Of a stretch of 64,000 nt of DNA, positions 3,301 through 47,957 are shown piece after piece. Source of the DNA: Branchiostoma floridae (taxonomy: Eukaryota > Chordata > Leptocardii > Amphioxiformes > Branchiostomatidae); the NCBI RefSeq assembly GCF_000003815.2, contig NC_049995.1:12977712-13041711 (forward strand), read 5' to 3'. The notes beneath the pieces were generated by a model. It was not told the origin of the DNA. It was given only the letters and a program-made list of their open reading frames with translations, and did no database searches. The position numbers were made by a program, and so were the translations under genes. Position 1 is the stretch's first letter. Every line of letters begins with the position of its first letter.

Positions 3301-6300
3301 ATTGTTATACTTTCTGAGTGCACAGAGATGGAATTTCAGTCTTTTTTTAGTAAGTTAAATAACAGTGTTGTGTGTGTGTGATATGTGTGCGTATGTGTGT
3401 GTCACAAATGTGCTCACATTGAAAGAACATTTTAAAAGCACTTAAGCCACTATACTACTGGAAAGTTGTTGAAAGGCTTCAAGGTAATCTAATGTTGAAA
3501 GTTTTGCTGAATATGGTGAATTTTGTTGTAACACTTAGTTTAAAGTCTTGTAATTGTCATTTTGGGAGGAGAGGGTGTCATTCCAAGAAACAATTGATTG
3601 AAATGGTAACTGTTTAAATGTTTTAATCAATTAGGATTTTACAAAGAAGGCCATAACAACAAAACAACTGTTACATTGTCTAAATGTTTTAACATGTAGG
3701 ATTCCCTTCCATCATGAGGAAAGTTGTTTGGCTACTCCTGCTGCTTCCATGGCGGGTCCAGGGCCAGCTAGAGCCCTCTACATCAACAACTGCCACTGCT
3801 ACAGGGAGTCCCTCTGCAGCTTCTACAGAGAAATGCCCAGAGTTGTATGCATATGATGAATGGGTGCATGACTGTTTACCATGCAGCATATGCATCTCAT
3901 ACCCCAATTCACCATTCTGCCATGCATGTCCAGAGTTTAATAAGGAAACTCCTCAGGCACCTGCACCAGCAGGTCCTGACTCAGAAGTGGACTTAGAGAC
4001 ATCTGATGTAGTTGGACAATCCTCAGGTGAGTACTACATGATTTACAATGTATGTTGTCTTTTTACTTGGTCTACAGTAAACCGTATGAAATTGTACTAT
4101 AATTGTAGACTCTTACAACATTGTATAAGACCTGTAAAAATTCAAACTTGGAATCATCATATGCATTACTTAATTTATGAGGCCAAGATCTAACAACAGG
4201 TGGTCTAGCACTAATGTAAATATATTTTGAAAGGAATTGTAGAATCCAGTCAATTATGTATTTCAGGCCAGAATTATCGAATCATGTTTCCCAGGAAGGA
4301 AACATTCTGATTTTGTCGACGTTCATTTTCATCTTTTTCATCCGGGAGGGATCTAATCAAAACTCAGAAAAAACTGGGAGCTATAATATGCTTTCCGCCT
4401 TACCAGCTTTTTGATTGGCCGAAAATCTGTCTTTCTCGGGGATACGTCACTGGTGGACCTATCAATGGGCAGGACTCAAATAGCTCGCTATCGCCTTCTT
4501 TACCAGGATGCAATGAAAAACCGGGAGGGACGTATGCGAATCGGCCATATGTTCGACCAAAAAGGCGTTCCAGGAGGAAGTTGCCCGCCATGGAACGAAT
4601 GAGATCACAAACTTTTCACACAAAAACATTGTGTTCAGAAGATTAGACATTGGAATCTTGGAATGAACGGACCTATTTAAGCTATGCCCTACATTTCTAT
4701 ACCTGTTAGAACAAGTCAAATATGTTTGTGTTGGAAGCAACGTAGTGGTTAATGCATCATCATTCTTAACCATTTTAGCAGCTTCAACCCGAGTTCGAGT
4801 CCGCGGAGGGTGATTTTTTTTCAATTGTCCTTTTTTTCCTTTTTAAACATGCATTTAATATAAGAATACTTTCATCTTGCGACCAGAACCATCAAAACCC
4901 ACCTTTGGGACTTTCTGTTCTGCATTTGCGTGCATGTTTTGGTAAAGAAACAGGGCTTGATTGTCAACGTATACAAAACACACCAGTATCAGTGCCAAGG
5001 CAAGAGGTAGGGGGGTAGATTTGCGTAATCAATAAGTTGCTCCAATGAAAATTTAGCGATCGATCAGTGTCACCGTTTTATCTGTTCTAGTTAATGGCGG
5101 TGCATGCAGGACACTCCAAGAAATGAAGAAAAAAAACTCAGGCATTCTGTAGTTACTGTAACAAAAATATTCAAGACCTGTAAATCAAGATTGAACATGA
5201 ATCTGAGAACCATTTATTTCATTCGGATCTTTATACAATGTACACTGTAATATTAGTTGGAAGACTTTCTACACAACACTTCCTATTTTCTGTCCTGGTG
5301 CTGATGATAATGTTGAGAACCATGTTTTGCAAAGTACATCATTCTATGTATGTATACTAAAGGCAAGTTTCATACAACTATGAAAATATACACTTTTCTC
5401 CTTTGTCATCTTTATTTGCCACAAAATCAATTTTCAATATCAATTGAACTTCTTTCCACAGACTTCCTACCTATGCTGACTGGAGCTATTGTTGGAATCA
5501 GCATTATGTTTCTGGTTATTTTGGCCCTAATTTTGAGCTTCAAGGTATCATTCATTAGGGCGAAATGGGTCAAATTGGGTTTAATGAACAAGCAGCCACA
5601 GCGAAAAAAGAGGTAAGATAACTTTGATATTGATTAGAGAACTAATGTAAATCAAAATGGTACCCAAAGTGTTCCCACATGAGTCTGTAGTTCACCTAAT
5701 CACTACATTTGTATGTCATTTAAGGTTGTAAAACAGAAGTTATAATTAATTGACCCAAGAAATACTTGACATGTGTGATTGTATCTTGGAAACTGGAATG
5801 CCTTTTGATACAATAAGCATTTAAGTGTTTTTTACGTAATGATTATGCCATCATTGAATAATCAATTAAATCAATGATAATCATTAAAGAAATGATAATC
5901 ATTGAAGAAATGATAATCATTGTTTCTTGCATTGCTTTCAGCAAAAATGGAAGAACTATCGATGCACCAGATCTGCAACTAAGTGAAAGAATGCATGGAG
6001 CCAATTGCAATTTGAATGTACTGATAGCCCAGGCACCAAAGACTTTACCTCCAAAAACACAAAATGCAATTGCACAGATGCAAAAGAAAAGTGTCCAGTT
6101 TGTGCCAGATGGAAACATATTTGACTCTGACTCTGACATAAGTCTTTGTGAGACTAGAACATGTAGTTCTGCAGCAGACAGTGGATATTGTGCTCCCATT
6201 GTATTGACACCATCTAACAGACTCAGTGTGATACAAATGTCTCAATGTGAAGACGAAAGTTGCAATGAGAGCACAGACTCTGTGTGTAGTAAGATCAACA

Positions 6301-9300
6301 TTGCTACATTTGATTGTAACTCAGTTGTTTTCTTTTCGGAGGCTCTTATTGGCAAAGACGGCGGTATCTTAATGCTTCCTAATGCTGCGACTTCTCTACT
6401 ATTCAGTCCACATTCTATCTCAAACCAGATTGACATTACCCTGGAAATACTGCATAACCCAGTTATACTGCCTGACTTAGGGGAAGATGAGACTTTGGTC
6501 AGTCCTTTTGTGTGCTGTGGTCCTCACGGCTGGACCTTCAACAAACCTGTGCTGTTAACATTTCCTCACTGTGGCATGTCTGACACAAATGACTTTACCT
6601 TACTTGTCAGTGAAACAAGTAGTCAGCAGGTTCCAGATTGGGTAGAAGTTAGCAATGCTACCCCAGGTATTGAGTACTTTGTCAGGGACAGCGAATGCCT
6701 TGTGTACACCAAACATTTCACAGGGTTTTCTCTGAAGTCTAGGGGCCCCAAGCAAGTACGTTTACTCGCTTTTTCAAGCGTATCTGATAACTTGTACAGG
6801 CTTAGGGTCTACTGCATCAATGATACAAAAGATGCCATTGATCGCATTAGGAGGGAAGAACAGGAATTTGGGTTCAAGCCAACCGACAGGGGGATTTCGA
6901 TGACCTTCTTGAATAACAAGGAGGACATTCGTCTGAAAGCAAACTTAGAGACACCAGGCTGGAAGTTTCTAAACAGTTCACAAGAGCTTGTGATCAGCTA
7001 CAATTCAGTTCGGGGAAAGAGGGATGGTAATGTGATGTTCAACCTTCAAGCAGAACCAGACCTTAAGGGAGACGCAAGGGTTCTGTCCCTGAGCATACAT
7101 GCTTTTCAGGAAGGCAACTCAGACTCTCCAACATACAGTGTTGCTGAGGAGTTGCCAATTGGAGAGTTTGAAATGACCCCATCTCTGCCTTCCTACCACA
7201 GATGTGATCATAGAGGGGCATGTAACTGTGTGACACAAACGCAGGTCTACACAGTACACACTAACATTACAAACCAGGCAAGGGTGTCTTTTCTGAACAC
7301 TCTAGGAAGCCACAGAAATCTTACCATCCCACATAAGCTTCGCACACATCTTTGCATTAAACTAGACCCCCTAAAAGAGCGTGGTGATGACTGGAGAAGT
7401 CTTGCGAGTGATTTGGGCCTTGACGAGTTGATTGAATACTTTGGTTCAAAGGGAAACCCAACTGAACTGGTGCTCCAAGAGTTTGAGAAGTCTGAGAAGA
7501 CCTTGAAAGATCTTTGGGGTATTCTGATAGGCATGGGGAGGCCAGATGCAGCTTCTTTGGTACAAATGTACATTCAGACAACAAGTTGTAAGCTGCCTTC
7601 TCCTGTTAGTGACAGTGGGGTGGGAAGTCCTGATACAGATCTAGAGGCACCAGGAAGGGATAGCACTCCTTCTCCTGGTTCTGATGTAAGGTTCTTTCCA
7701 AATGGCCCTTCAAGAGTAGGGGAGAGCTTTGAAGCCATATCCGAAACAGACCCACCACAACATGTGCACTGCGGAGGGTCTGTTCCTTCTGAGGATTTGT
7801 ACAATTCTAGTCAAGCTGCTGGTTCTCAGACAAACTCTCCACAGTTCTTGCATTGTGGTGGCTCTGCCCCTTCCCAGGATTTGTACACATCTTCTCAAGA
7901 TGCTACTTCTCAGACAAGCTCTCCACAATATGTGCATTGCGGAGGGGCTGACCCTTCAAAGGATTTGTTCAGTTCTTTATTTGAACATGCTATTTCCCAG
8001 ACAAACACTCCACAGTTCTTGCATTCTGGAGGGCCTGTTCCTTCCCAGGATTTGTACAATTCTTCTCAACATGCACATGTTTCTCAGACAAGCTCTCCAC
8101 AATATGTGCACTGTGGAGTGTCTGTACCCTCACATGAATTGTACAACTCCTGTGAAGAACAAACTGAACCAAAACTGATCCAAGCTATTGAAAATATGCA
8201 GGACTTACCACTTAACGTTAACAGCACAGCCAGGGAGAATGATGAGCCAGGAAATGATGAGGCTCAGGAAATAAACGAGACAGGTACAGATGACTCTGTC
8301 AGCTCCCAAGATATCGAGGTTATGGTTGTTACTAGTCCAGAAGTTAGGCATCTTCCAAATGGGCTCCGTGAGACAGAAGTGTAAACTGATGACACAGTGA
8401 AATTTGTCATTGAAACATACTGAGTTCTTATATCATGACTTCATATATAGTCCAGTTGTTAGCGGCCATGCCTCTGGAACTAGAAGTCGTGAATCCAAGT
8501 GTACACTCCTGTAAGGTGTTCCAGTCCTTAAGACAGGACATCAAGCAGTGGTTCCCTGTCAATTATGCTTGTCAAAAAGACCTATACAAAATTCTTTGCC
8601 CTCCCAAAATGTGACTTAAAAATGAGATGGAATGTGGACTTCAAAAACTGAGAAGATTGCAACAAGGGACAGCATTTGCTTTTGAATAAGGGTAAACCTG
8701 CCTGTCCATCAAATAGTTCATTTCATTGCATGGCCTTTTGCATTGTATATACATGTATTGTTAACTTTTAATTATCTGTTTGGAGTAATTGATTCCCTTT
8801 AATAAGTTAGTGCCTTTTGCGTGATATGTATTAACTTGTTGAAGTGTGTGTGTAATGACTTAATCAGGTTTGTTTTTTTATCGCATCAGTACTTTGGTGT
8901 TAAAGAATTGTACATGTATATCAAGTGGTGATACTTAATTCATACTAGTTTGTTTCTGTATTTTGAAAGACATTTAATTAGTTTTATTAATTTGTATATA
9001 CAAGGGTTGCAGGTAATAAATGGTCATAAATCATAATACTTAGCTTGTACAATAAAGCTTAAATTTGTAGTTATTGATATCAGATACTTGAAAACAAAAC
9101 TGCTACTAACTGTACATTGTAATAGGACAAAGTTTATAAATATGCACGTAAATACTGTGAATCTTTGTGTGAATTGACAAATTGATTAAGAGGGCATAGT
9201 AGAGAAGATGAAGATGGCTTTGTATGGCAGAAAAAGAAGCTTTTATACTATAGCATGATAACCATTAAATTTCCCTGCTTTTTTTACATAATTATGACTT

Positions 9301-12300
9301 ACATTGTGTTACTGAGTTAAACATACATTGTATATTTCTACAGTAACTGCTGTATACATATATACACAATGTACCTCTAGTCTGTAGATTAAAAAAAGGG
9401 CTGTACATGATGCAATTATGATGCTTATCTTGTCTTTGTGCATTTGTGTGAATGTTTATGCATGACAAGTGCATGTGCTTGCGCATATGTGTGTGTTGGT
9501 GTGCGTGTGACGACTAAAAATACAGAGCAGCCATCTATCCCAAACCTGACAGGCTCCCTCAAATCCCCTCCTCCTTCCCAAAGAATGGACAGAAAAAGAT
9601 AGAAAAGGACAGGAAAATTAAGTTTGTCGGTACCATCAATTGTGGACTCCACTGGAGTTTCCTCATCATCGTTAAGTCTGTGTTCATGAGTCGTGTGGAT
9701 GTCGTCTTTGCTCAGCGTGCGGGCATGGACTTTCTTAAAGGAGTTGGGCTTGCACTCCTTAACCTGGTAGGAAGACACAAGAAATACTATTCAAGCAAAG
9801 AAGTTATAATTACTACAAATAGGTATCATCTTAGGAGCCTTTTGATCAAACTTTATTTATCCATGTAAAACTCAAATCTTCCTACTGACTGCTATATTCA
9901 TTGAGGTAATGAGGCGAGAGGTAAGGGTCAGACAAAATACAATTTGAGTTTTAGTCAATTGATAGAGGATGCTCTCCTCTTCAGCATCATCACATCTTTC
10001 TTTCCATCTCAAAAATATGATTTTGATCAGCAAATCTGTTGTAATATATGTATCATTGGATGTAATGAAAAATTAGGGAAAAAAGATCTATAAGTTTGTA
10101 CAGGTATGAACACAAAACCCAGGGCAGGCTAAAAGCAGTATAATGTTTCGTGTGAGAAATTTTTGCCTTACTCTGATGAACCCTCGGACTGGAATCTTGA
10201 GGTTTGTCCCGACCTCTAGCATGACCTTCCAAGGAGCGGCCCGCACGTTTCGCTTCTGGAAGAAACTTAGCATCTGCAGGGCCTCACTGGAACAGTAGAG
10301 GAAACAAAGGTTATAAACTTAATAACCAATGTTACACTGCAGGCCACATTGGTTGTAGCATCAGACTATATATTTGCCTTTATAAACCAATTATTGGCTG
10401 CTTGTTCATCTTGAATTAAAGCCACCTTAGTGCAGACTGACTGGCATGCAAGTTTGTTTCTGTATGCGTTTAAAATTGACAGTTTCCTTCGCATACTGCC
10501 AGACATTTGAGATCCTCCAAACTTACATGATATGCACATCATATACGAGCTAGATGTCCTAATTTTCAATGCTAGTTTCTCAGTTCTGTCTTCTCACTCA
10601 CATATAGAAGCCATTTAATTGTCTATTTGCCAGGATATTTTGTGCAATTATATATAGGTGCAATAATGTGAAGTTATCCAGGTGGAACGCATCGGTTTGG
10701 GATTTTGACATTTCGTGCAGTGTGTGTTAATCCATTGTGCAATTAACTGGCTATTTTATACATGTTCTGTTGTTAAGGAAAGGGATAAACACGAGATGCT
10801 TTCTTCCTGATTATATTTGTAAAAATGGAAATAGGAAAATTTTTGAAGCTTCTGATAGCACCATCTACATCATACTGAAGTAGGTTTGCCCTTAAACTGA
10901 CCTCTCGGAGTACGCAACCCCGTCGACCTCCTCGATAACGTGGCGGATCAGCGCTGTGCCTGCCCGCTGCTGGGGCGTCCGCTCCTTCCTGGGGGGTCCG
11001 GCCCCGTTCTGGTCAGGCATGTCGCCATCTTCATCATCATCATCAAGGGACAGCCCACTGAAGGTCAACAATGGATACAACTTATAACAATGAATGGTTT
11101 TCTGTTTTTGCGATAACCTTATATTTTTTGTTTTTAACTCTCTATTTGACATTTAGGCACTTGATATAATATAAGAAAGCTCTGTTTTACATGTATCTTA
11201 TTTTTCTAGCCTGTTCATACTCATGGAGAGTGAGTGAGTAACTAAGTGAGAGAGAGTGAGAGTGAATGAGTGAGTGTGTGATTGAATGAATGAGTGAATG
11301 AAAACAAGTGAGTAAGCATGAATGAATGAGTGAATGAATGTATGTGTGAGAATGATGAAAGAGTTGGAGTGAATGGTTAAATCAATGAAAGAATAAATAC
11401 ATGTAGAAGAATGAATGAATGATGGGTAAGTTGATGAGTGAGAGAATGGATAAGTGAATGAGAAAATGAGAGTTGATGAGTGATGAATGAGGGAATAAGA
11501 GAGTGAACAAGGGAATGAATGAGTCAGTTCTGACTCACATGAGGTTGAATTCACACTCCAGTGCCTTCATCCCGTTGATGACTCCCTCCAGCTGATCGTC
11601 TGTAAACTCTCCCGCCAGGTTCGAGAACAGGACGATTCGCTTTGTCTCAAACTTCTTTCCCCTGGAACAAACAAACAAACAAACAAACAAACAAGTCCAA
11701 ACAGGAATTGTTATAACAGCCTGGTTTTCCATGAGAAATATTTAACTAAATCAAATAGTGTATGTATCAAATCAGAATTTTTCATACTCACATGGTTTGG
11801 TTCCGCACCAGGTCTAATGCCACCACAATGGCGTCCACAACTGGGAACTGTCAAGGATCATAACAACAATAAACAAAATGATCTGACTATAATAAAAACA
11901 GTTTGCTGTTTCTGTTGCAGGCACGAAATTATTCTGACATTGAATTCTCTACAAATTCCTGGAAAGATACAGTCGGCAGACACAGGAGGTGGAAGAATGT
12001 AGCATTGCAAACATCCTAATGCTTTCATTTCAATGGTAAAATTTGCCAAACAGAAAGGATACAGTCAGCGGACACAGGCCCTGGAACAATGTCGTTCTTT
12101 ACAAACTCAAGCAGGTCGAAGTCTGGCTGTCCTAGCGGCCGCGCAACTGTGATGTTCAGGTAACTCTCGTCGTCTGTTCCTGCCAGCTCATTGGCTGTTT
12201 CCTGGGTACCAAGCAGGATGAGCGCGACCTCATCCTTAGACTGGGAGAACATCTGTGGGAGAAAGGTCAAGGTTAGGTCAAGGTGATAACAGTGAAGATC

Positions 12301-13306
12301 AAAGCAAAGCTGTAGTATAGACTATATAGACATAAGTTCTAGGAGTAGGAGTCCATGGAACTATGCAGAAGACTTTATCCTTGAAGAATTTAAGTAGTCA
12401 AGTACTAGTACTAACATTGGGAAAAATTTCATCATTTGATCACTATGCTGAGACCAGTTAATAAGTAGAACCTTGTACTAAAAAGTCACACGGTCTGGAA
12501 CACCTGTATCAGCCGTTATCGCGGCCCAGGTATGACCAGTGACCACAATCTCAAGTGGTCTTATAATTTCTATTCTAGGATAGCAACCTGTTTCTGATAC
12601 AACAAAAGACCATTGTCTCCTTTAGAAGACAGACCTCTCACCTTTCTCTGCAGCAGCATGGAGATGGCATCCTTGGCGTTTTCCAGGGGGGTGACATGTC
12701 CAGGGGGGGCCTGCGCCATGAGGGGGCCAACGTCAACCACCAGCACCATGGCTTCCTGTAGGGGGGTGGGATGAGGGAGAGCGGTGGTGAAGATCAATGA
12801 GGGTTTAGAAATAAGTACTTACCTGGTCCAAAGAATATTATAAAAGCATAATGATTATCAGGTGGAGGACAGGAGGACCAAGGTGTCATATTTTTGCAAT
12901 TTAAGTTTATTTCTTCTTATTCCCCTTGAGCCCCTTTCATTCAACATGTTTGAATGTGAATGCACAGAAATCATTATCAGTTAGTATCACATATCATAAT
13001 TTATTACAACTTCATAATTTCTCGGTTTGTGTGTGTGTATGGGGGGGGGGGGGGGGTGCGGCGGTGAAGGAATGCACATAATTGTTCCGAAAATGAGTTT
13101 ATATCATTACCTTTCCTTTGTCGCTTGCTACTTGTACAAAGGTGATCATACTGTGCAAAGAACGCTTTAACGTGCTTGATCATGCCATGACACCAAGGCG
13201 TACACATATATATTTGATTGGACTGCATTTTTGTGGTGAAATATACTGCATTTATAGGATCTGACTCAATTCATGGATGCAACATTACCTTCGGACTACC
13301 GGCCAT
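359..13306 (-). CDS. XRCC5: XRCC5 / Ku80, 5' twelve coding exons (3' part outside window)
   Basis: Large subunit of the Ku heterodimer, which binds DNA ends and recruits DNA-PKcs in non-homologous end joining. Exons, in transcription order: 13306-13289, 12755-12642, 12252-12063, 11840-11792, 11661-11539, 11057-10902, 10286-10172, 9763-9634, 1758-1646, 1163-1101, 738-671, 428-359. All have GT-AG borders and phases join without a break (1209 nt, 403 codons). Start MAGSPK; then the vWA-like domain (MVLVVDVGPLMAQ, SADFVDAIVVALDLV across a junction, MGKKFETKRIVLFSNL) and the Ku core (YRYGNTIVPFS, FDVLGF, HIKPNYE), each matching vertebrate Ku80 in order. An Asp-rich insert (DDDDEDGD) sits in exon 6. 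The rest of the core and the C-terminal DNA-PKcs-binding region lie left of the window. Intron 8 (about 7.9 kb) contains another gene on the opposite strand. Confidence 0.97.
1330..1550. repeat. CA-rich simple repeat
   Basis: Degenerate (ACAC)n / ACACAT tract in XRCC5 intron 9. It opens low-complexity frames on both strands that are not genes. Confidence 0.9.
1759..3713. other. Intron sequence without recognisable genes
   Basis: Part of XRCC5 intron 8 upstream of the nested receptor. Apart from the inverted-repeat element remnant at 3148-3243 and a short GT-rich tract near 3370-3400, I see no coding signal, RNA gene or clear repeat. The receptor promoter should lie near its right end but shows no obvious TATA box. 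Confidence 0.5.
3148..3243. mobile_element. Truncated Tc1/mariner-type MITE (same family as 23828-24020)
   Basis: The sequence from CGCTACCGCGG through ATGCATGTACAGTA matches the right half of the complete element at 23.8-24.0 kb, including CTACCGCGAAA, the GCAAACTTAAATGCA block and the terminal CAGTA. The left terminus is missing. Confidence 0.6.
3714..8384 (+). CDS. Fn14-like TNF receptor with ZU5-UPA-death-domain tail
   Basis: Three coding exons, 3714-4026, 5462-5612 and 5942-8384, join in phase to a 968-residue type I membrane protein. Residues 1-18 are a signal peptide (MRKVVWLLLLLPWRVQG). Residues about 40-75 hold one cysteine module with spacing C-x12-C-x2-C-x2-C-x8-C-x2-C, the same as I recall for Fn14 (TNFRSF12A). 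The transmembrane helix lies in exon 2 (about 108-133), followed by basic residues. The tail has a ZU5 domain (about 270-370), a UPA domain (to about 560) with a KHFTGF motif near 412, and a death domain (about 615-700), as in UNC5/UNC5CL/PIDD. Five tandem 28-residue repeats follow. Likely role: ligand-induced death or NF-kB-type signalling. The gene is nested in XRCC5 intron 8, antisense. The family assignment is firm for ZU5/UPA/death, less so for Fn14. Confidence 0.88.
4728..4830 (+). mobile_element. tRNA-like segment, probable SINE head
   Basis: TAGTGGTTAATGC resembles a pol III A box and GAGTTCGAGTCC a B box, about 45 bases apart, followed by a short T run. No clean cloverleaf is visible, so a SINE head or tRNA pseudogene is more likely than a working tRNA. 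Confidence 0.4.
7741..8160 (+). repeat. Five tandem 84-bp coding repeats in receptor tail
   Basis: Residues about 755-895 of the receptor are five copies of a 28-residue unit built as SQTxSPQ(Y/F)(V/L)HCGG, then (V/A)PS(E/Q/K/H)(D/E)L(Y/F)NSS. Copy 1 contains PSEDLY, which fits the TRAF6 consensus PxExx-aromatic. The later copies have Q, K or H in place of E. An overlapping plus-strand frame (7729-8178) is only a shadow of this periodicity. Confidence 0.85.
8455..8620 (+). mobile_element. Degenerate tRNA-derived SINE in receptor 3' UTR
   Basis: AGTTGTTAGCGGCCATGCCT followed by CTGGAACTAGAAGTCGTGAATCC resembles the A-box/B-box arrangement of tRNA-SINE heads, with the B box mutated. It lies just after the receptor stop codon and would be part of the 3' UTR. 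Confidence 0.35.
9015..9056 (+). terminator. Polyadenylation signals of the receptor gene
   Basis: AATAAA at 9015-9020 and again at 9051-9056, about 640 bases after the stop codon, in AT-rich DNA. This is the first plausible 3' end for the receptor transcript. Confidence 0.5.
11221..11535. repeat. Degenerate (GAATGAGT)n low-complexity tract
   Basis: About 300 bases of GAATGAAT/GAGTGAGT variants in XRCC5 intron 5, directly beside the donor of exon 5. A (CAAA)n tract sits at about 11664-11692 beside the acceptor of the same exon. Confidence 0.85.
11966..11987 (-). repeat. Partial duplicate of XRCC5 exon 3 end with its splice donor
   Basis: On the minus strand CCTGTGTCTGCCGACTGTAT repeats, with two changes, the end of exon 3 and its donor at about 12057-12079 (CCTGTGTCCGCTGACTGTAT). 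The copy lies about 100 bases inside intron 3 and keeps the GT. Use of the true donor is supported because GACT joined to exon 4 restores SADFVDA. Confidence 0.6.
13041..13056. repeat. Poly-G tract
   Basis: Sixteen consecutive G on the plus strand in XRCC5 intron 1. A similar run of about 17 G lies at 35729-35745. Confidence 0.95.
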
Positions 13307-19300: not shown

Positions 19301-22300
19301 TACTTACATTTTACAAGCAGCCCTAGGGCATGTATTTGCAATTATAAAACTTAACATTTATTTTGCAGCACTGTAAAGCAAATAGGTTTTTCCCTGTGGA
19401 ATATGACAGACGGTCACAGAGACTTCAGCAAGGGATAGTGTGCTGTTTATGTGCGAAAAACTTTGTCATCCCGTGATTTAACCGGACTTATTTAAAAATC
19501 AGTGGAAAACTGAAGGACTTATGTTAAAGATTCAAGAATGAGTAGAGGGAAGATATAAAGCACACAATATTCTCAGGTATGTGCCACTTTTTTGTTTGTT
19601 TGGTTTCCACAGGTTGTTCTCCTTGAGGGAAGTTCCCGCCTGGGTGGCTGGCTCCAGTCCACCAGGACAGAAGAAGGAGCGATATTCGAACACGGCCCTC
19701 GCAGTCTCCGGGTGGCGGGAGAACCGGGGGCAAACATCCTTGGGATGGTGAGGACTTTCACTTTTTGTTATCTTAAGAAGATTATCATTTTTGTGGCAGT
19801 TGTAATGTATGTTAATAATATGTATGTTTGTATGTCAGTATGTGGGCAACATAACTTAACTTCAAAGAAGCTATTTATGATAATTGATATAACGTTACAG
19901 TATGTGGGGATGGTAAGGACTTTCACTTTTTATTATTTTTTTGCATTCTATTAAACCATGAATAATTTGTGATGCTTGCATTGTTCTATTTCTAGTTATA
20001 TTACCAGAAGAAAGTTTAGAATGTAGCCTTGGGTAATCATTTTATTCTATTTCCTTAGCATATGACATTCCAAGTTTAGAGTGTGACATTGGGTGCGTGT
20101 TCTATTTCCAGGCGGATGACCTTGGGTTGACAGACCAGATCCTGCCCGTCCTTCCGAGCCACGAGGGAGCGAAGAACCGTTTCATCTACGCTGGCGGGAA
20201 ACTTCACAAACTGCCCAGCAACTTCAGGTGGGTGTCTGTACTATATTGCATTATCAAATGATAGCCTTGTCCTATTGGGCTGAAACAGGAATACAAATCT
20301 ATGAAGTCCAAATAAAGTACACATTGTAACAGGTCTTCTGTTACTCATATAAAACATCCGTTCTAAAACTTAGCTCTAACACATAGGTTTGGATTCTTCT
20401 TGTCTCTTTGTAATGTCAAGAATTTAGGTTGAGATGGTTTATTTGAGCTAGGTTGAGATTCGTGACTGGCATATCATTAATAATTGCACCAGCTGCCTAG
20501 CTAGCAATATGTTTCTCCTGGTGAAATAAATAAATGTATTGTCTATGTGTTTGTCAGCAGGGCTAGCCCTTTGTAATAGCCGTAGGCTAGTTGGGCAGCC
20601 CTGGCTGTGTGTTCGGTACAGCCAAACCAATAAATAGAAAAAAAATAAATAAATATAGAAAACAAAAAACTTCAGGTGGGAGTACAGTGGACAGTATTTA
20701 CACAACAATCACATATACTTTATTTTAGGGCTTGGACTATATAGGTGTAACAATAGGAAGCAAACAAGTTTGTACCACTTGTCAGTGTAAAGAGCATTAA
20801 AATCATAATCAATATTTGCTGCAGCAATATCATTGAACATCTTTTCCAAACATCATGAGTTGATATGTCATGGCAGTAATGGTATACAAAATGATGTACA
20901 TGGTGGCAAATTGATATATAACGGGGGCCGCCCTAAGACGGTTCCCGTCCTAAGACGGTACGGATTTTTTGCTGATCTTATTATCCATAAGTACACCGTG
21001 TTTGTTACCGCTGACTATGCTGATTACAAAGGTAAATAAACTAAGTCCATGCACACAGCTTTAATTTGCATTCCAAGTATACTTTAACATATTTACTTCA
21101 TGTTTTTAAAAAACAGAATTCTAACAGTAATGTTGACAGTGCTGAATCACTGAGGTCACCGGCTCCTGCGTATTGCCGGCTCGTGTCGCTAACTATACGA
21201 ACTCGTCCAAGCAGTCACACAACTGCCATGATACACATAAATAAAGCTCCATAAAACACTATGGATATGGGTCTTCAAATGTTTGTTGAGTAGAAAAGCA
21301 ACCAAAAGGAAGCGACATAAACATTGCCACCATTGTACTCCCAAGGGAGTGTGGCCGTGAAGGTGGCAGACAAGAGAACGCTCCAAAGATTTATTTGACT
21401 GTAACAAATGATTCGTGCTGTCTATGAAAATAAGACTTGATAGAGAGATGTATATGATATTTTCATATAATCACACAGAGTTTTGTTGATGTTGGCGTTG
21501 TCGTTTTTTCGTAATGGTTTTTTTAGTCGGGCATTCACAATCAGTGCATTCGGCCCATTGCCCGTAAAAACATCAGCTGGATTGTTCTAGGTACAGCCTT
21601 CCTCATATGAGACAGAAAGTACATACAGTCACGATTTTACTGTTAAAAGTAATCTAAAATATCATACTATTAATTTTTTTCTGTGTACTTAAATTTACCA
21701 CTTACTTCTGAAGAGAGCAAAATGTAAAAAAGCGTACCGAGTTAGGCACACTGTCCAGCGTAGCACAAAATTGGAAGGTTACATACACGAAATTGTCTCA
21801 CAGTGTTTACCGCTTGTAACACGCAGCGCGAAAGGTTCATGAACCACATGAATGCATTTCTTATCAAGTATGTTGTTCATATCCATGTGTAAAAAATTCA
21901 GTCATCAAACTTTGACCACTCTCAGGCAACTAGCGATGGAGCGCCATGAGTTTGAGCGCAAGAAAAAGCGTACCGTGTTGGGGCACCTCCCGTTACCATT
22001 CAAAATCATCTTATTTTTTATTCTGTATAACTCAAGGAGGAACCTTAGTAACTATGAAAACTACGTGTTTAATGATGTGCAAAATGCAAGTATTAATCGC
22101 AACATGTACTCAGCTCAGCATCCATTTTAGTCTGTTTTAAATTACTTAACGTCATGGAGTAGGTTTGATAAATACAAGGAGGTTGAAGAAACCGCCTTCA
22201 GTTGGTAAACAAGACTCTAAAATAAATTACCATAGGCAAATATTGACCTAGCTGTTGCAATCTGGACTTTGACTTGAGGCGGGGCTGGAAACACTGTAAG

Positions 22301-25300
22301 GCAGCTTCACTGTCTAGATTTGGCACACAAGTCGGTTAAAAGTTGTGCTGTTCACCAGGCTCAAGGTGCAAGCCTTTGAGCACACCTTCCCTTTAAGCTA
22401 TCCTGTCTGTAGAAACTTAGTGCCAGAAGGACTTTAAGGTAGTACCTTGCTGCTATCAAGACATCAGGACCCGAGTTTGCCAGGAATGTAACCAACAGCA
22501 TGTCTGAGAAACGCCAAAAGCAAGAAACACTGCTTTCAAGTCCTGTACAAACCCAGCCTGCTGTATTTCAGCCCACCAACATCCCAGTGCCAGTATGTGG
22601 ACATGTGACAGACCAGTCTCTTCCATCTGCACCAATCCTAGCAGCAAGGGGCACAGACCATCACCATGGTAACCAATGGCAAGTGGAAAATCAGTCTCAG
22701 AGGATGACATTTGGGGGAAAAGGATCAGCAACAGGACAGTTCAGGTATCCACGTGGTGTTGCAATATCAGATGAAGGGGAGATTTTTGTAGCAGACTATT
22801 GGAACTACAGAATCCAAATCTTCACCCTGCAGGGAAAATTTGACCGACAGTTCCCAACAGTCGTTTCAGGTGAAGAGAAAATGAAACCATCTGATGTGGC
22901 CCTGGACAGGGAGGGGAACCTGTGGGTGGTGGGCAAGACAGGGTCTGCTGAATTTGCTGTGCAGTACAATAAACAGGATATACTTAGGAAGTTTGACCTA
23001 CAGAAGACAATTTGGGGAAGAGGGGTTCTTGTGGACACCAGGAGGAACCACATCCTCATCACACAAACCAAAGGAAAGCCCCCCAACCAGTATGGCGAAT
23101 TACAAGTGTTCAGGCCAGATGGGACACTTGTGACAACTGTGGGTGAACAGCAGGGGATGAAAAATCCATGGTACATCACTGTGGACAGGGAAGGGAACAT
23201 TCTTGTATCGGACTGTGTAAATCACTGTGTCTATGTGTACAATGATGATGGAAGTGAGTTTTTGTTTCTGTTTAGAGGTGAGGAAAGTGGTGAAGGTCAG
23301 CTGATATCGCCCCATGGCATCTGCACAGACAGGGCAGGTAACATCATCGTGGCAGACTATGGAAACAGCCGTGTTGAAATGTTTGACAAGAAAGGCAAAT
23401 TCCTTAAACACATCACTACAGACATGGGAAAGCCACAGGCTGTTGCCATGGGGACAGAGGCACAGCTAGTGGTGACTGATTGGGTGGATGACACAGTCTC
23501 CATATTTCACAGCTACTGAATGTTTTAAAGAACTAAACAGTATGTTAAATGTCAAACAATCAGATTCCCCTTACACGTGTACCTGTATGTATTGTAAGCT
23601 GTAAGCTTTATAACTCTTTGTGGACATTCTGATGAGAAAGAGGCCTTGTTACAGATCCACTTCTGCATAATGCAGGGTGCAAAGAAGTTGTATCCTCTGT
23701 TTTTCTCAGCATAGAAAAGGATCCTTAATTTGGTCTGTATGATCATAATGATTATAGTACTTAGAGCCATTGCCATGGCAACACAGGACATGCTAGTAAC
23801 TAAGTATAGGAGATACTAGTAAGGAGATACTGTAAATGCAGAAACTTTTGCGGTGGATTAATGTTTGCGGTTTTCAAATTTAAAACCGCCGCGAACATTT
23901 TTCCATAACAGTAAGAGACTACAGTGTATGGTGCTACCGTGAAATTAAAACCGCCCCGAAAAGTCCATTTTCCCGCTACTGCGAAATTAAATCTCCGCGA
24001 ACTTAAATGCATTTACAGTAATCTTTTATTCAATGAATTACAAAAAATTGAAATGATTATCATTATTGCAGACTGTTGGGTGTATAATTCCAACTTTTTC
24101 ACAAGTATTTCTGAAATCAATCTTTATGTTAGGTTATGATAATGGTCAACAATATTGATGTCGCTAGAAAGTAAATAGAGACATTCGAGAAGTAATGTAG
24201 TAGTCTATGCAGATGTGGAGATATTTTACAAGGTAGTTGAATTGTTTTCCACAAGTTTGGTAATTTGTTGTTTTTTACTGTCAAATAAAGTAACTAACTG
24301 TAACATGCATTGCACTTGTCATTTTATTTTCCAACAACTTGGAATTTTACAAAGTCAGTACATCTGATTCAACACTCTAATAGTGATATATACCATATAT
24401 AGTACACATTTCTTGAGGCTGAAGATTTATTTTTACAGTAAATTGTTATATTTTGTAAGGCCCTGAAGAATTATAGCTTGAAAAAGACAAATTCAAGGTA
24501 AAACCGTCAGGTTTGACTGTAAACAATGCTCCCCCCCCAACCTAGATAATTCTAAGATATGAGCCGATTGATAACCAGCCTTTGATTCATCAGACTCTGT
24601 AAAAAGGTAAGCCAGGGCTTCATAATTATTCAAAAGCCAGCCCTTCGCATGGTAACTGAACAATATGCTATATACATTTACAAATAATCAAAAGGCATGT
24701 ATAAAGGTGTTCACTGCGCAAAGTACAAGACTTGAAGGTATTTTTTACGATCAACCACGTGGAGATGATTGTTCAAAAGGTACAAGCTATTTGATGAGCA
24801 CTGTAGACCCGACTGTTACTAAGACAGAATAAGGCAAAATGAGGTATAAACCAAAGAGTGTAGGTTTGACAGACATTTCGTTCTACTTAGAGGTCTGTTC
24901 CGGAGGTACGAGCTGTTTGCTAACCAGTCTCCTGCCCTGATGGGACTGAGGGAGCCATTTGTGAAGGGGAGGCAGGAGGAGGGGGATGAGAGTGTGCACA
25001 GCTTCTTCTGTAGGAGGCTGGGGAAACAGGTAAGGTTCTCCATCTGTGACTTATCTGTTTCTAACTATGAGAGAAAACAGGTAAGACTGAAGATTCTAAC
25101 TGTTTCTGAGGGAGCCATTTGTGAAGGGGAGGGAAGAGAAGGGGGACAAGGCTGTGCACAGTTTCTTCTGTAGGAGACTGGGGAAACAGGTGAGGTTCTC
25201 CATCTGTGACTTCCAAAGTTTCTAACTGTGTCTGAGGGAAATATGGAAGGTACTGTCTCTGTGACTCCCAAAGTTTCTAACTGTGTCTGAGCGACATGTT

Positions 25301-32625: not shown

Positions 32626-35076
32626 TCAGCTCTGAGGCAATCGTTCCCGTGCCGTAAGATAGATTTCTAGCATTGGAGGGTTCATGGGATTGACCCCGCC
32701 CTGTCTGGTCGCTACCAGTGGTAAGTTACCACTGGTAACTACATCAGTCGTGGTGTTGGTGTTGGATTGGGCCTCAGGCCGCCCCACAGGTTTGTATAGA
32801 GAACTCTGCTTTGAGACAGTTGGCCCTGTGCCGTAAGACAAATTTCTAGAATATAAGGACTCATCGACGGTCTGAGACAGGCCCTGCCCTGCTTGGTCAG
32901 TACCAGTGGTCACTACAGCAGCCGCGGTGTTTTGGTTGGATTCAGTATCGGCTTGGGACTGCCCCTGAATGACCTGATCCACAAGAGATTGAGCGCCAGC
33001 CTGAAACTGACTCGGCCCTGTCTTACTGCCCGATGTAGTTGCTGTACATGTGGTGTGTATGTTTGATTCAGTGGTAGTGCGAGGTGCAACCTGCCCTGTC
33101 TCATAACGACCGTGACCACTGGCAATTGTTGTAGATGTTGGGTCTTTTGGTACTGTTTCCACACCTGCATATATTTGATTTGGCTTTAGTGCAACTAGCA
33201 CTCTAGTATTTGAAAGTGGTGCCACTTCGGGCTGACCCTGCCCTGTCTGATCGTGTTGGTTGTCAATATTTTCATACTGATGATCAGGATCACTGGCATT
33301 TACAGAACCTGTGTTTGTGTTGCCACCAACAGCATTAGGTTTTGGTGCTAAAGGAGGATGCATAGTCCTCCTCTTGCACCAGATTGTGAGAATGATTATG
33401 CCAAACAGGGCAATACCAGCTACCGGGCCGCAGATAGCGCTAATGAGAACAGGCAGGGTGGGACTGTGAGCAGATCCATTAGGACCGCTTCTTTTTGGGT
33501 TATCCGGAGTGATTGCAAGGGGTGAAATTTGCGTTGCTTTGATTGTTCCTACAGGACCTGCTGTTAAGGCCACCCTGCCTTTGAAGTACCAGTGATAGCG
33601 AGATATGACAGTGCCATTGTAAACGTTGTGAGAGTTTCCTTGGATATCAACAGGCAGTGTTGATATGGTTGGCTCTTCACATGTCATTTCTTCAGGATTC
33701 ACATGTATAAGCTTCTGTCCCTTAAATCTGAGGGGTTGGTCACATATTATCTGGTTTTGAATTGAAGGACATTCCGTCATATTCAGCCGGAAGGGGGCCA
33801 TCTTACAGTCACACTGCCAGGGGTTCATGGAAAGTTTTAGATCACGAATAGTTGGCAGCAAAGCACAAGCAAAAGGGGTAATAACAGACATCCTGTTGAA
33901 TCGAAGGTCCAAAATTTGGAGGGGTAACGGTAGGTTTTTAAATACAGAATCCAGATTAGTTATGTGGTTGAAGGAAAGGTGTAAATTTTGTAGCCGGGTC
34001 AGATTTGAAAAAACACCAGAATGAATCTTTGATATCTGGTTGTTTGTCAACGACAAGGTTTTGAGTTGGGGCAAATTAACAAATGCACCTGTCTGGATCA
34101 TTGTTATTTGGTTGGAGGACAAGGAAAGGTCATTTAGGCGAGATAGATACAGAAATATATCAGGCTGAATCGTAGTTATTTGGTTGTTGGAAAGGTCCAA
34201 CTCTTGTAGCTGGCTTAGATTTACAAATACAAGAGGGTTAATCACTGTTATCTGGTTGTTGCTCAGGTACAACTTTTCTAGCGCTGGTAGATTGGTAAAT
34301 GATCCAGGCCGAAATGTTGTTATTTGGCCATTGGTCAGGTACAATTTTGGGAGGTTGGGTACATTTGCAAATGTACCTGTTTCGATCTTTGTAATTTTGT
34401 TAACAGAGATACCCAGGTGTTTGAGCTTGGGTAGATTTTGAAATGCACCAGGGCGAATCATTGTTATCTGACAATTGGACAGGTCCAGCATATGCAGCTT
34501 GGTTAGATTGGTAAATGTACCAGACTGAATCATTGTCATTTGGTTCCACCCTAGGAATACAATTTGTAATTGAGGTAGATTTGCAAATGAGCCAGGTTGA
34601 ATCATACTTATCAGGTTGTGAGACAGGTCCAACTTTCTCAGCCGTGGTAGATTTACAAATGTACCAGACTGAATCATTGTAACCTGGTTCGAGTCCAGGT
34701 ATAACTCTTGTAACTTGGGTAGATTTCTAAATGTACCTGGGTGGATTTCAGCTATTTCCTTTTTCATTAAGAACAACGTTTCTATGTGTGTTAGATTAAA
34801 AATATTAAAGCAAAAACTAGGAGTGGTATTGCAATCCGTTACCATATCCAACGAAATCAACTTCCAATACTGTATCAGCTCAGCCCGATTTACAGTTGTG
34901 ATGAGGTTGCCCCCCAAATACAGACCAGAGATGGATGCAGGGAAGTTCTGAGAAATGCTGGTGCTACCAAAGGTGTGGCATTCGCAGTTCCCACAGCTGC
35001 AGTCGGCTTCTGGCATGTTGAGCTCCTTCAGGATGATGAGAAGAAAAATCAGCAGATGCCGCAGTTTTCTTCCCAT
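32626..35076 (-). CDS. LRR single-pass transmembrane receptor
   Basis: One exon, 816 residues from the ATG at 35076 (a GTG four codons upstream is not the start). Signal peptide MGRKLRHLLIFLLIILKEL, short Cys-rich cap (CSCGNCEC), about 14 LRRs of 24 residues with the pattern LxxLxLSxNQIxxIxxGxFxNLP, then an LRRCT cap (NPWQCDCKMAPF through MTCEEP). A membrane-near linker precedes the transmembrane helix (VLISAICGPVAGIALFGIII) and a tail of about 250 residues rich in T, Q, S and G. YENI in the tail fits a GRB2-SH2 site. A TTTAG acceptor just 5' of the ATG implies an untranslated upstream exon. Cell-surface recognition or adhesion is likely; the ligand is unknown. Lancelets carry many such LRR receptors. 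Confidence 0.88.
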   Translation of the reverse strand: MGRKLRHLLIFLLIILKELNMPEADCSCGNCECHTFGSTSISQNFPASISGLYLGGNLITTVNRAELIQYWKLISLDMVTDCNTTPSFCFNIFNLTHIETLFLMKKEIAEIHPGTFRNLPKLQELYLDSNQVTMIQSGTFVNLPRLRKLDLSHNLISMIQPGSFANLPQLQIVFLGWNQMTMIQSGTFTNLTKLHMLDLSNCQITMIRPGAFQNLPKLKHLGISVNKITKIETGTFANVPNLPKLYLTNGQITTFRPGSFTNLPALEKLYLSNNQITVINPLVFVNLSQLQELDLSNNQITTIQPDIFLYLSRLNDLSLSSNQITMIQTGAFVNLPQLKTLSLTNNQISKIHSGVFSNLTRLQNLHLSFNHITNLDSVFKNLPLPLQILDLRFNRMSVITPFACALLPTIRDLKLSMNPWQCDCKMAPFRLNMTECPSIQNQIICDQPLRFKGQKLIHVNPEEMTCEEPTISTLPVDIQGNSHNVYNGTVISRYHWYFKGRVALTAGPVGTIKATQISPLAITPDNPKRSGPNGSAHSPTLPVLISAICGPVAGIALFGIIILTIWCKRRTMHPPLAPKPNAVGGNTNTGSVNASDPDHQYENIDNQHDQTGQGQPEVAPLSNTRVLVALKPNQIYAGVETVPKDPTSTTIASGHGRYETGQVAPRTTTESNIHTTCTATTSGSKTGPSQFQAGAQSLVDQVIQGQSQADTESNQNTAAAVVTTGTDQAGQGLSQTVDESLYSRNLSYGTGPTVSKQSSLYKPVGRPEAQSNTNTTTDVVTSGNLPLVATRQGGVNPMNPPMLEIYLTARERLPQS

Positions 35077-35089
35077 GGTGCCTGCCACC

Positions 35090-38293: not shown

Positions 38294-39931
38294 CTAAACC
38301 GACTCATCTATTTGCTTACATGCTTTGTCATCAGCAGTTTTCTTATATGTGGTAGAACGTTGGTTTAGACGATGTTTTCTCCAATCGAAGGTCACATTGG
38401 CAGGCTTCTCACCGGCATGTTTTCTCTTATGAAGTGTCAGGTTCCAACTTTTATTAGTTGTGTAGCCACACTCCTCGCACAAGTAGGGTTTCTCACCGGT
38501 GTGTATTCTCTTATGTTGGGATAAGACAGACATATGAGCCGTTCTATACCCACACTCCCCACACATGTAGGGCTTCTCGCCTGTGTGTCTTGTCATGACG
38601 TGTATGTCTAACTGGCCTTTCTGTACAGCAGAATAGTCGCACCGGTCACACTTGTATGGTTTTTCACCTGTGTGTGTTTTCATGTGCCGGGACAGGTGGG
38701 ACCTGACAGCCGTCCTGTATCCACACTCCCCACACATGTAGGGTTTTTCACCGGTGTGTTTCAGCATCACGTGTTGGTCTCGATCGCGCCTTCCCGCAGC
38801 AGAGTAGTCACAATGATCACATTTGAAAGGACCCTTCTCATTATTACGTGTTGTCTTATGTTTGGTTACAATTTGCATATCTGCCTTTCTGTATTCACAA
38901 TCTGTAGGTTTCTTATGGGGTTCCACACCAGTGTGAGTTTTGTTATGTCGTGTTAAGGCAGCACTTAGAGCCGTCCTGTAACCACACTCTCCGCACATGT
39001 ACGGTTTCTCATTAGTGTGTTTTGTGACGACGTGTTCATCCAAACGGCCTTTCTGTGCAGCAGAATAGTCACACTGGTCACACTTGAAGGGTTTTGCACC
39101 TGTATGTGTTTTAAGATGCCGAGTTAGACCAGACTTAAACGCCGTCCTGTATTCACACTCCCCACACTTGTAGGGTTTTTCACCAGTATGGTTAGTCTTG
39201 TGACTCTTAAGGTTACTTTTAACTGCTGTAGAATAGTCGCACTGGTCACAGTTATAAGGTTTTTCACCGGTATGTTTTCTCATATGTATTGGTAGACTTG
39301 CCTTTATAGCCGTTCTGAACCCACACTTCCCACACTTATAAGGTTTCTCCCCAGAGTGTTTTAGCATGGCGTGTTGGTCAACTTGAGATTTCTGTGCAGC
39401 AGAATAGTCGCACTGGTCACACTTGAAGGCTTTCCCCTCGGTATGTTGTTCTCTCATATGTTTGAATATAAGATCTCTTTGTTCTGCCCGGTAACCACAC
39501 TTCCAACAAATGTATGTATGTTTTGCCACATGGCTAACCTCCTGTGTGGTATGGCTCTGTACAGCTGTTTGTGGCAAAATTTCCTCCTCAGACCCCGTAC
39601 AGTTCACACCGAAGGTTTCGGCATTTGAAACGTCCTTTTCCTGTACATGCAGATGTGGTGAGACTCCCTCCTCGGGAGTAGTACAGTTTACTCCGCAAAT
39701 TTCCTTGATTAGAACGCCCTGTTGCCGTCTTGTGTCTGCTTTCTGTTCCCCAGTGTTGCCAGTATTGTTCCCTGGGTAACCGTGTGGTAGGTTTACATCG
39801 TATGTTTCCTGGAGTAGCTCGTCTTCTTGTCCATCCTGCTGCCATTTTGTGTCTTCTGTCTTCTCCTCTTTGATGTGCGTTTCGTTCGCAGTTTGTTCCG
39901 CATGAAGAGGCTCACATGTTAACCCTTCCAT
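38294..39931 (-). CDS. C2H2 zinc-finger protein A
   Basis: A 545-residue frame in the 3' exon, beginning MEGLTCEPLHAEQ directly after a TATATAG acceptor. The N-terminal 150 residues are acidic, with one IKEE SUMO-consensus site followed by DTKWQQDGQEDELLQETY and the shared NCTGSEEEILPQTAVQS segment. Then come a first atypical finger (YICWKCGYRAEQRD) and 11 more intact fingers with TGEKPY linkers. CDQCDYSA-type and CGECGYRTA-type fingers alternate. One finger (around HKKPTDCEYRKAD) has lost its zinc ligands. Nuclear DNA-binding regulator, target unknown. An upstream non-coding exon is likely (candidate donor at 41880). Confidence 0.9.
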   Translation of the reverse strand: MEGLTCEPLHAEQTANETHIKEEKTEDTKWQQDGQEDELLQETYDVNLPHGYPGNNTGNTGEQKADTRRQQGVLIKEICGVNCTTPEEGVSPHLHVQEKDVSNAETFGVNCTGSEEEILPQTAVQSHTTQEVSHVAKHTYICWKCGYRAEQRDLIFKHMREQHTEGKAFKCDQCDYSAAQKSQVDQHAMLKHSGEKPYKCGKCGFRTAIKASLPIHMRKHTGEKPYNCDQCDYSTAVKSNLKSHKTNHTGEKPYKCGECEYRTAFKSGLTRHLKTHTGAKPFKCDQCDYSAAQKGRLDEHVVTKHTNEKPYMCGECGYRTALSAALTRHNKTHTGVEPHKKPTDCEYRKADMQIVTKHKTTRNNEKGPFKCDHCDYSAAGRRDRDQHVMLKHTGEKPYMCGECGYRTAVRSHLSRHMKTHTGEKPYKCDRCDYSAVQKGQLDIHVMTRHTGEKPYMCGECGYRTAHMSVLSQHKRIHTGEKPYLCEECGYTTNKSWNLTLHKRKHAGEKPANVTFDWRKHRLNQRSTTYKKTADDKACKQIDESV

Positions 39932-40449
39932 CTATATAATAGAGACAAAGAAATTATTGAAAATACATCACCACTAACTTGCGCCAAGATAAACGAAGCA
40001 AATACGATCTGCATTATGTGAATGACTTCTTTCATCATTTCCTATGTAACATTGACTAACTTACGCAAAAACAAAACATGGGTCCTATTCCACATCTAGC
40101 AGGATTACAATACTGAAGAGACCGCAATGTTTCAATGTTCGTTCCTTTATGGGATTCTCCTAGCCCCGACTGCCCCAAAATAATTTCAAGGCCTTTCTCA
40201 CAACCGGACCTTCTTCCCCTTAATATACAGCATTAAATCTGCTATTTTTGACCCTGCTTCCTGTCAGTTTCTCTGCACGTCGTGATTGAAATATGGACGG
40301 TGCTGCCGGTGCATCCCCTTTTCTATAGAAACACTCAACAAGGGCAAAAAGGAAAACAGACAAGTGCTGTTGAAAACAAACTCGCACCAATAAAGAAAAA
40401 CGAATGGGAAAATTGGTGCTTTTGAGTGATTCGCCCTGAGCCAACTTTT

Positions 40450-40582
40450 GAGTTTGACATTTGAATATATGCATGAACATGAGTTTGACATTTGAATATA
40501 TGCATGAACAACATGAGTTTGACATTTGAATATATGCATGAACAACATGAGTTTGACATTTGAATATATGCATGAACATCAT
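40450..40582. repeat. Minisatellite, four copies of 31-34 bp
   Basis: GAGTTTGACATTTGAATATA, then TGCATGAACA(ACAT), starts at 40450, 40481, 40515 and 40549. The copies are almost identical. Direct, without spacers, so not a CRISPR array. Confidence 0.9.

Positions 40583-46192: not shown

Positions 46193-47957
<1,765 letters not shown>

What the first reader, a model, noticed from the sequence alone, without database searches (positions are those of the whole stretch)
3714..8384. Fn14-like receptor ectodomain fused to a UNC5-like ZU5-UPA-death tail
Seen: signal peptide, a single cysteine module with spacing 12-2-2-8-2, a transmembrane helix, then ZU5, UPA and death domains in one continuous spliced frame. 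Known: vertebrate Fn14 (TNFRSF12A) has the same spacing as I recall it, but a short TRAF-binding tail and no death domain. UNC5CL and PIDD have ZU5-UPA-death without this ectodomain. Inference: a TWEAK-like ligand could drive a UNC5CL/PIDD-type platform directly, a receptor design not present in vertebrates.
Basis: partly seen in the sequence, partly recalled or inferred. Interest (0 to 1): 0.85.

Follow-up and report, generated by a model that had tools for sequence, protein, structure and literature searches.

The report
Lancelet TNF-type receptor with ZU5-death tail
This looks like a real lancelet gene for a cell-surface receptor that joins a small Fn14-type TNF-receptor head to a ZU5-UPA-death-domain tail of the kind found in UNC5 and PIDD, with a sequence motif suggesting that the tail cuts itself, a combination I did not find described.

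Summary
Three exons (3714-4026, 5462-5612, 5942-8384) join in frame into 968 residues: hydrophobic leader, one 12-2-2-8-2 cysteine module, membrane helix, ZU5, UPA, death domain, repeat tail. The module's only significant PDB match is Fn14 (2.1e-5); a profile of 17 modules from this genome finds Fn14 (2.1e-7) and TACI (8.2e-4). Both splice donors rank top of 263. Of 17 Fn14-like places, only this one lies within 50 kb of a ZU5 match. A C7 gene has the closest tail of those compared (33%) with the same membrane-exon phases.

New here: H-F-T (residues 413-415) sits at the ZU5 strand where PIDD, NLRP1 and CARD8 cut themselves; 16 of 18 readable ZU5 sites in this genome have HF[ST] there. I read it as a two-piece death receptor.

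TWEAK as ligand is not supported: three residues important for TWEAK binding are replaced. Transcripts, cleavage and a second lancelet genome could not be tested; the one structure model was unusable.

The parts
3714..4026 (+). exon 1: leader (about residues 1-17, by eye), Ser/Thr-rich spacer, cysteine module, stalk; ends in phase 1
3834..3929 (+). Fn14-like cysteine-rich module, residues 41-72, spacing 12-2-2-8-2
4027..5461 (+). intron 1 (GT-AG)
5462..5612 (+). exon 2: transmembrane helix (about residues 107-131) and basic stop-transfer segment; phase 1 in, phase 2 out
5613..5941 (+). intron 2 (GT-AG); reading on past the donor meets a stop at once (AGG TAA)
5942..8384 (+). exon 3: whole cytoplasmic tail, 2443 bases, one open frame to the stop
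6342..6611 (+). ZU5 domain, residues 289-378
6714..6722 (+). H-F-T motif, residues 413-415, at the ZU5 autoproteolysis position; predicted scissile bond F414-T415
6750..6965 (+). UPA domain, residues 425-496 (Pfam match, under cut-off)
7347..7568 (+). death domain, residues 624-697
7611..7628 (+). DSGVGS, residues 712-717, fits the beta-TrCP phosphodegron pattern (pattern recalled)
7752..8171 (+). five copies of a 26-29-residue repeat, residues 759-898

Best explanation
It is a single-pass type I receptor of the TNF-receptor superfamily. SHOWN by sequence: an Fn14/TACI/BCMA-class single cysteine-rich head, a membrane helix, and a ZU5-UPA-death tail encoded by one large exon. INFERRED: a trimeric TNF-family ligand of the lancelet clusters the head. 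INFERRED from a conserved motif: after synthesis the ZU5 domain cuts its own chain at F414-T415, so the mature receptor is two pieces held together without a covalent bond: head-membrane-ZU5, and UPA-death-tail. INFERRED: at rest, ZU5 holds the UPA-death piece closed, as I recall it for the UNC5B structure. Clustering or removal of the membrane piece opens or frees the UPA-death fragment, which then assembles death-domain partners (IRAK-, FADD- or RAIDD-type) and drives NF-kB or caspase signalling. Likelihoods: one gene with this architecture 0.9; TNF-family ligand 0.8; TWEAK orthologue as that ligand 0.3; self-cleavage 0.65; release of the fragment rather than signalling in place 0.4.
For: Open frame and splice sites. 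Domains. Head: with the single sequence Fn14 is the best hit and the only TNF receptor among 8 hits at E<=10 (2.1e-5); the family profile hits Xenopus Fn14 2.1e-7, human Fn14 5.4e-4, TACI 8.2e-4, BCMA 0.071 and BAFF-R 0.17; 10 of 17 family members hit PF12191 at E<=1, best 4.9e-4. Gene plan: the best in-frame donor after the module is phase 1 in the window and in 10 of 12 sister module exons; the best membrane-exon acceptor is phase 1 in the window and for 10 of the 11 sister module exons where one was found (three of the 11 share one membrane exon). Tail: the C7 paralogue matches at 33% over 433 residues (tblastn E 5e-62), and its membrane and cytoplasmic exons join in phase 1 in, 2 out, as in the window. 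Motif: HF[ST] in 16 of 18 ZU5 sites that could be read through in one frame (14 HFT, 2 HFS). D'Osualdo 2011 (PMC3210808, passages) puts CARD8 F296 at UNC5b L677, gives the HFS motif for PIDD and Nup98, and says Ser, Thr or Cys can start such cleavage. Candidate ligand exons exist.
Against: No transcript, protein or second lancelet genome was seen. The UPA match is below its Pfam cut-off (24.1 of 27), as are TNFR_c6 and PF12191 for the head. In the profile search a designed protein (0.018) ranks between TACI and BCMA, so BCMA and BAFF-R are not significant. The self-cleaving ZU5 cases that I read about use Ser; Thr here is an extrapolation. 2 of 18 ZU5 sites lack the motif, and UNC5B, the closest solved structure, has Q-L-G there, so ZU5-UPA-death tails also exist without it. 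HMMER's own alignment to UNC5B puts the gap elsewhere and pairs HFTG with VFTG; my placement rests on the Cys six residues before the His and on the ankyrin-2 alignment in the same call. Only 12 of the 16 HF[ST] sites have that Cys. The C7 cytoplasmic exon has no good-scoring acceptor at its start. The structure model of the tail was unusable (mean pLDDT 36.9).
Confidence: 0.6

Rival explanations
1. Same receptor, but the tail is not cut. It signals in place like UNC5 or UNC5CL: ZU5 folds onto UPA and the death domain, and ligand clustering opens the closed form.
For: UNC5B, the closest solved relative, has Q-L-G instead of H-F-S at the cut site (residue equivalence from PMC3210808, passages) and so is not expected to cut itself.
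Against: HF[ST] is kept in 16 of 18 readable ZU5 sites of this genome, including H-F-T in the nearest paralogue compared.
Confidence: 0.27
2. Two genes or two products. Exons 1-2 make a short-tail Fn14-like receptor (reading on past 5612 stops at once) and exon 3 belongs to a separate cytoplasmic ZU5-UPA-death protein from another promoter.
For: No significant ZU5, UPA or death match was found near the sister Fn14-like modules. A short isoform tied to intron-7 reads has been described for C. elegans unc-5B (PMC10464613, passages).
Against: The donor after 5612 ranks 2 of 263. Exon 3 starts in phase 2, which fits exon 2, and the C7 paralogue has a membrane exon that joins its tail exon in the same phase. 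As an extra isoform it is possible; as the only product it is unlikely.
Confidence: 0.1
3. The head is a chance or convergent cysteine module, not a TNF-receptor domain.
For: Single-sequence Pfam matches are below cut-off. No structure model of the head was obtained.
Against: Fn14 is the only TNFR-type hit among PDB chains with the single sequence and is significant. The family profile recovers Fn14 and TACI below E 0.001. Beyond the cysteines one proline column is invariant in the 17 modules and W-D is the majority.
Confidence: 0.04

Closest known systems
Fn14 (TNFRSF12A), with TACI and BCMA as next relatives
   Same: Single six-cysteine module with spacing 12-2-2-8-2, small type I receptor head
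   Different: Fn14 has a 28-residue tail with one TRAF site (PMC5606047, passage) and no death domain (recalled). The lancelet head lacks the equivalents of Asp45, Lys48 and Asp62.
UNC5B (netrin receptor) cytoplasmic part
   Same: ZU5-UPA-death order, 2.9e-22
   Different: UNC5 heads are Ig and thrombospondin domains (PMC10464613, passages on UNC-5). UNC5B has Q-L-G where this has H-F-T.
UNC5CL
   Same: Recalled: membrane anchor followed by ZU5-UPA-death, signals to IRAK/NF-kB (title of Heinz 2012 seen in a reference list; the paper itself is not held)
   Different: Recalled: no cysteine-rich head. This genome has a separate gene of that plan on C2 (12942041), 26% identical over 377 residues to the window tail.
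PIDD1, NLRP1, CARD8 (self-cleaving ZU5-UPA proteins)
   Same: HF[ST]-type motif at the same ZU5 strand, then UPA and a death-fold domain (PMC3210808, passages)
   Different: Recalled: they are cytosolic sensors with no ligand-binding membrane head.
Amphioxus TNFR-caspase hybrid genes (Zhang 2008, PMC2575513, passages)
   Same: Lancelet receptors that attach a TNFR head to a death-pathway domain and so shorten the pathway; cDNA-supported
   Different: A caspase domain instead of ZU5-UPA-death. ZU5 does not occur in that paper's main text (0 hits); its supplements were not seen.

Membership tests
Fn14 (TNFRSF12A) | single CRD with 12-2-2-8-2 cysteines | tested here: met
Fn14 (TNFRSF12A) | sequence relation beyond the cysteines | tested here: met
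   1 of 100,000 shuffles with cysteines fixed (Xenopus), 1,049 of 100,000 (human); profile 2.1e-7
Fn14 (TNFRSF12A) | Pfam PF12191 above its cut-off | tested here: not met
   13.2 bits against 24.9
Fn14 (TNFRSF12A) | TWEAK-binding residues Asp45, Lys48, Asp62 | tested here: not met
   Trp50, Asp53, Pro67
Fn14 (TNFRSF12A) | short TRAF-binding tail without death domain | tested here: not met
   837-residue tail after the membrane helix with a death domain
TNF receptor superfamily | extracellular CRD, single membrane helix, type I | tested here: met
   the signal peptide by eye only
TNF receptor superfamily | TNFR_c6 above its cut-off | tested here: not met
   15.5 bits against 29.4 for the head alone
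TNF receptor superfamily | TNFR fold of the head | not tested
   searches were not accepted; no model of the head was obtained
TNF receptor superfamily | binds a TNF-family ligand | not testable with these tools
   TNF-homology matches exist in the genome
ZU5-UPA-death proteins (UNC5/UNC5CL/PIDD) | ZU5 and Death above cut-off | tested here: met
ZU5-UPA-death proteins (UNC5/UNC5CL/PIDD) | UPA domain between them | tested here: inconclusive
   24.1 bits against 27; UNC5B alignment runs to residue 489
Self-cleaving ZU5 (PIDD, NLRP1, CARD8) | HF[ST]/SFS motif at the terminal ZU5 strand | tested here: met
   HFT 413-415; 16 of 18 readable sites in the genome. Thr instead of Ser.
Self-cleaving ZU5 (PIDD, NLRP1, CARD8) | actual cleavage | not testable with these tools
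   needs a blot

The most novel reading that the evidence does not exclude
Lancelets have a class of TNF-receptor-type receptors that cut their own tail at a ZU5 domain and hold the death domain as a detachable piece, so that ligand binding (or degradation of the membrane piece) releases a soluble UPA-death fragment, in the manner of the NLRP1 C-terminal fragment. The window gene (Fn14-type head) and the C7 gene (a different cysteine-rich head) would be two members, and vertebrate UNC5CL would be a headless descendant or sister of this class.
Probability: 0.25. Interest if true: 0.8.

Novelty: new variant of a known kind. Interest (0 to 1): 0.62.

Why it matters
If right, one protein would join two routes that are separate in the vertebrate systems I know of: TNF-family ligand recognition through an Fn14-type head, and the ZU5-UPA self-cleavage switch of PIDD and the NLRP1/CARD8 inflammasomes. 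That would give a directly testable case of a ligand-gated ZU5 switch. It would also suggest that the Fn14/TACI type of single-CRD head was present in the chordate ancestor and was multiplied in lancelets.

Tried and rejected
Structure: AlphaFold2 on residues 275-705 without an alignment gave mean pLDDT 36.9; not used for any fold search. The head alone was not accepted.

C7 head as a proven TNF receptor: TNFR_c6 covers the whole model but at E 0.023, below cut-off. The PDB search gave three zinc-finger matches and no TNF receptor. A three-exon joined guess gave BRINP at 0.66 in Pfam and, in the PDB, a RING protein at 0.02 with other unrelated chains above that. I call it TNFR-like only. My first C7 splice model was off by one base; with the corrected phases an extra small exon is needed between its cysteine exon and its membrane exon, so its head-tail join is a model. 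The notebook entry states the C7 phases wrongly for the cysteine exon; replace it.

TRAF motifs: three [PSAT]x[QE]E and one PxExx(aromatic/acidic) match in the tail, too common to weigh. DSGVGS degron pattern: 112 of 20,000 shuffles of the tail hold one (the same test for C7 failed there because the tail was not found); kept as a lead only. tRNA-like stretch in intron 1, seen by eye: ARAGORN finds none.

Literature: no held paper turned up for TNFR-ZU5-death receptors. Searches: amphioxus+ZU5+death domain+TNFR (3 papers); amphioxus+Fn14 (1 paper); TNFRSF12A+amphioxus+TNF receptor superfamily, two of three (188 papers, 20 listed); UNC5CL+autoproteolysis (0); lancelet, TNFR, Fn14, TWEAK, Branchiostoma, three of five (541 papers, 20 listed); ZU5+TNFR (19 papers); amphioxus+TNFR+death domain terms (47 papers, 15 listed). 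Of the papers listed I saw passages of nine, with one outline and abstract; the rest I saw as listings only. Huang 2008 (PMC2493400) and Heinz 2012 (PMC3307986) are not held, so prior mention there is possible.

Full report
THE GENE. The window lies at C17:12977712-13041711 of a 513-Mb genome in 431 contigs. The three exons join in frame to 968 residues. The two donors are the best two of 263 GT in the region and the acceptors rank 7 and 4 of 320 (matrix from memory). Pfam gives ZU5 and Death above cut-off and UPA below it. PDB sequence search gives UNC5B at 2.9e-22.

THE HEAD. With the 50-residue head alone, Xenopus Fn14 is the best of 8 PDB sequences at E<=10 (2.1e-5). Human Fn14 follows at 0.16 and 0.4; the other five are DNA primases. 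The genome holds 17 places similar to the head at E<=10, one of them the window itself; four of the others have a stop inside. In 20 fetched regions a motif scan found 16 further modules. Ten of the 16 have exactly 12-2-2-8-2, three have 11 in the first gap, and three have four in the last gap, two of these with 13 in the first. All 16 were aligned with the window. This 17-row profile finds Xenopus Fn14 (2.1e-7), human Fn14 (5.4e-4), TACI (8.2e-4), BCMA (0.071) and BAFF-R (0.17); a designed protein at 0.018 ranks between TACI and BCMA, so only Fn14 and TACI count as significant. Four weaker places seen by tblastn only (on L025, L030, L036 and L037) were left out of the alignment. Two open frames on C5 carry three modules in a row.

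GENE PLAN OF THE FAMILY. I looked at 12 sister module exons. In 10 of 12 the best in-frame donor after the module is phase 1, as in the window. The exceptions are C378c (phase 0, with phase 1 almost equal) and C8d (phase 2). The best membrane-exon acceptor is phase 1 for 10 of the 11 where one was found; C13 is phase 2 and C2 has none. The three C378 module exons point to one membrane exon, so they may be one gene. A tblastn of the full protein against the 20 fetched regions, which cover the sister loci plus the 10 kb upstream of the window, gives head matches except for one 22-residue ZU5-region match at E 4 and two matches of the repeat tail on L029 at E 0.077 and 0.84. By position, 1 of 17 Fn14-like places (the window) lies within 50 kb of any of the 41 ZU5 matches. 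One weak place (C17:12912101, E 0.17, with a stop inside) lies 72 kb from the window's own ZU5. So, as far as these searches reach, the fusion is special to this locus.

THE TAIL AND ITS RELATIVES. The genome has 41 ZU5 matches, the window's being seventh by score. I compared the tail with four of the others. The nearest is on C7 (14557695, minus strand): 33% over 433 residues, tblastn E 5e-62. A C2 gene follows at 26% over 377 residues. C7 has a membrane exon that joins a single cytoplasmic exon with phases 1 in and 2 out, as in the window, although the acceptor of its cytoplasmic exon scores poorly. Upstream lies a cysteine-rich exon that looks like a TNF-receptor domain by eye but reaches only E 0.023 in Pfam, below cut-off. 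Its UPA and Death matches are also below cut-off (26.7 of 27 and 18.5 of 22.6 bits). C2 has a short extracellular start, a membrane helix and ZU5-UPA-death in one exon, like UNC5CL as I recall it.

SELF-CLEAVAGE MOTIF. [quoted passage not shown] UNC5b L677 lies seven residues after C670. The window has C-L-V-Y-T-K-H-F-T, with F seven after the Cys. The C7, C2 and both C4 genes have H-F-T or H-F-S at the same distance from a Cys. I fetched short stretches for 35 of the other 36 ZU5 matches; one partial match on C3 was not fetched. In 13 of the 35 the frame stays open over the stretch (129 residues or more, a criterion set after seeing the output), and 11 of these have HF[ST] (10 HFT, 1 HFS). 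Two on C1 do not (17313980 and 17321778). In 22 of 35 the frame ends first; nine of these show HF[ST] or SFS in some frame of the stretch and 13 do not, and none of the 22 was counted. In all, 16 of 18 readable sites carry HF[ST], 14 of them with Thr; 12 of the 16 have the Cys six residues before the His. These genes are related, so the 18 are not independent. Cleavage itself is a prediction.

LIGAND. Human Fn14 Asp45, Lys48 and Asp62 are reported as important for TWEAK binding (PMC5606047, passage). The window protein has Trp, Asp and Pro there. A TWEAK-like protein is reported for B. floridae as a tree outgroup (PMC8517431, passages), and the genome has 21 exon-level TNF-homology matches, 3 with stops inside. 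The ligand is therefore open.

CONTEXT. Lancelet TNFR-caspase hybrids with cDNA support are known (PMC2575513, passages), so shuffled TNF receptors are expected in this group. I found no held paper that describes TNFR-ZU5-death receptors, but two key papers are not held.

VERDICT.

Noticed in passing
L039 (C4:29775001-29782500) and L040 (C4:30842501-30850000): Two long single-exon frames read LRR - membrane helix - TIR - ZU5 with a D-C-V-V-F-L-D-H-F-T motif: Toll-like receptors with a possible self-cutting ZU5 module (domains other than ZU5 judged by eye).
   Followed up: partly
L020 (C5:19972001-19982000), minus strand 5708-6106 and 8866-9249: Two neighbouring open frames each with three Fn14-like modules in a row, unlike single-module vertebrate Fn14.
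   Followed up: partly
window 7752-8171 (residues 759-898): Five copies of a 26-29-residue Ser-rich repeat around HCGG..PSQDLY.SS, absent from the C7 paralogue in the alignment.
   Followed up: partly
window 7611-7628 and C7 paralogue: DSG motifs after the death domain in both genes (DSGVGS and DSGLGPGS) and before ZU5; could be degron sites.
   Followed up: partly
L079 (C13:1250705-1251105, minus): ZU5 frame ending in THFSWYR, which looks PIDD-like from memory.
   Followed up: no
L043 (C7:14562501-14568500), oriented 1272 and 2174 of the joined stretch: A second cysteine-rich exon and membrane exon upstream of the C7 gene, perhaps another TNF receptor; Pfam gives no match for the cysteine exon.
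   Followed up: partly
window 12028-12321, 19559-19951, 22443-23516, 32629-35088, 58266-61175: Neighbours: a Ku N-terminal exon (Ku80-like by recall), an amine-oxidase exon (PPOX-like by recall), an NHL-repeat frame, a long LRR frame with a membrane helix by eye, and an OTU frame with a below-cut-off MULE transposase match.
   Followed up: partly
window 38294-56304, minus strand: Five long single-frame ORFs with C2H2 zinc fingers by eye.
   Followed up: no
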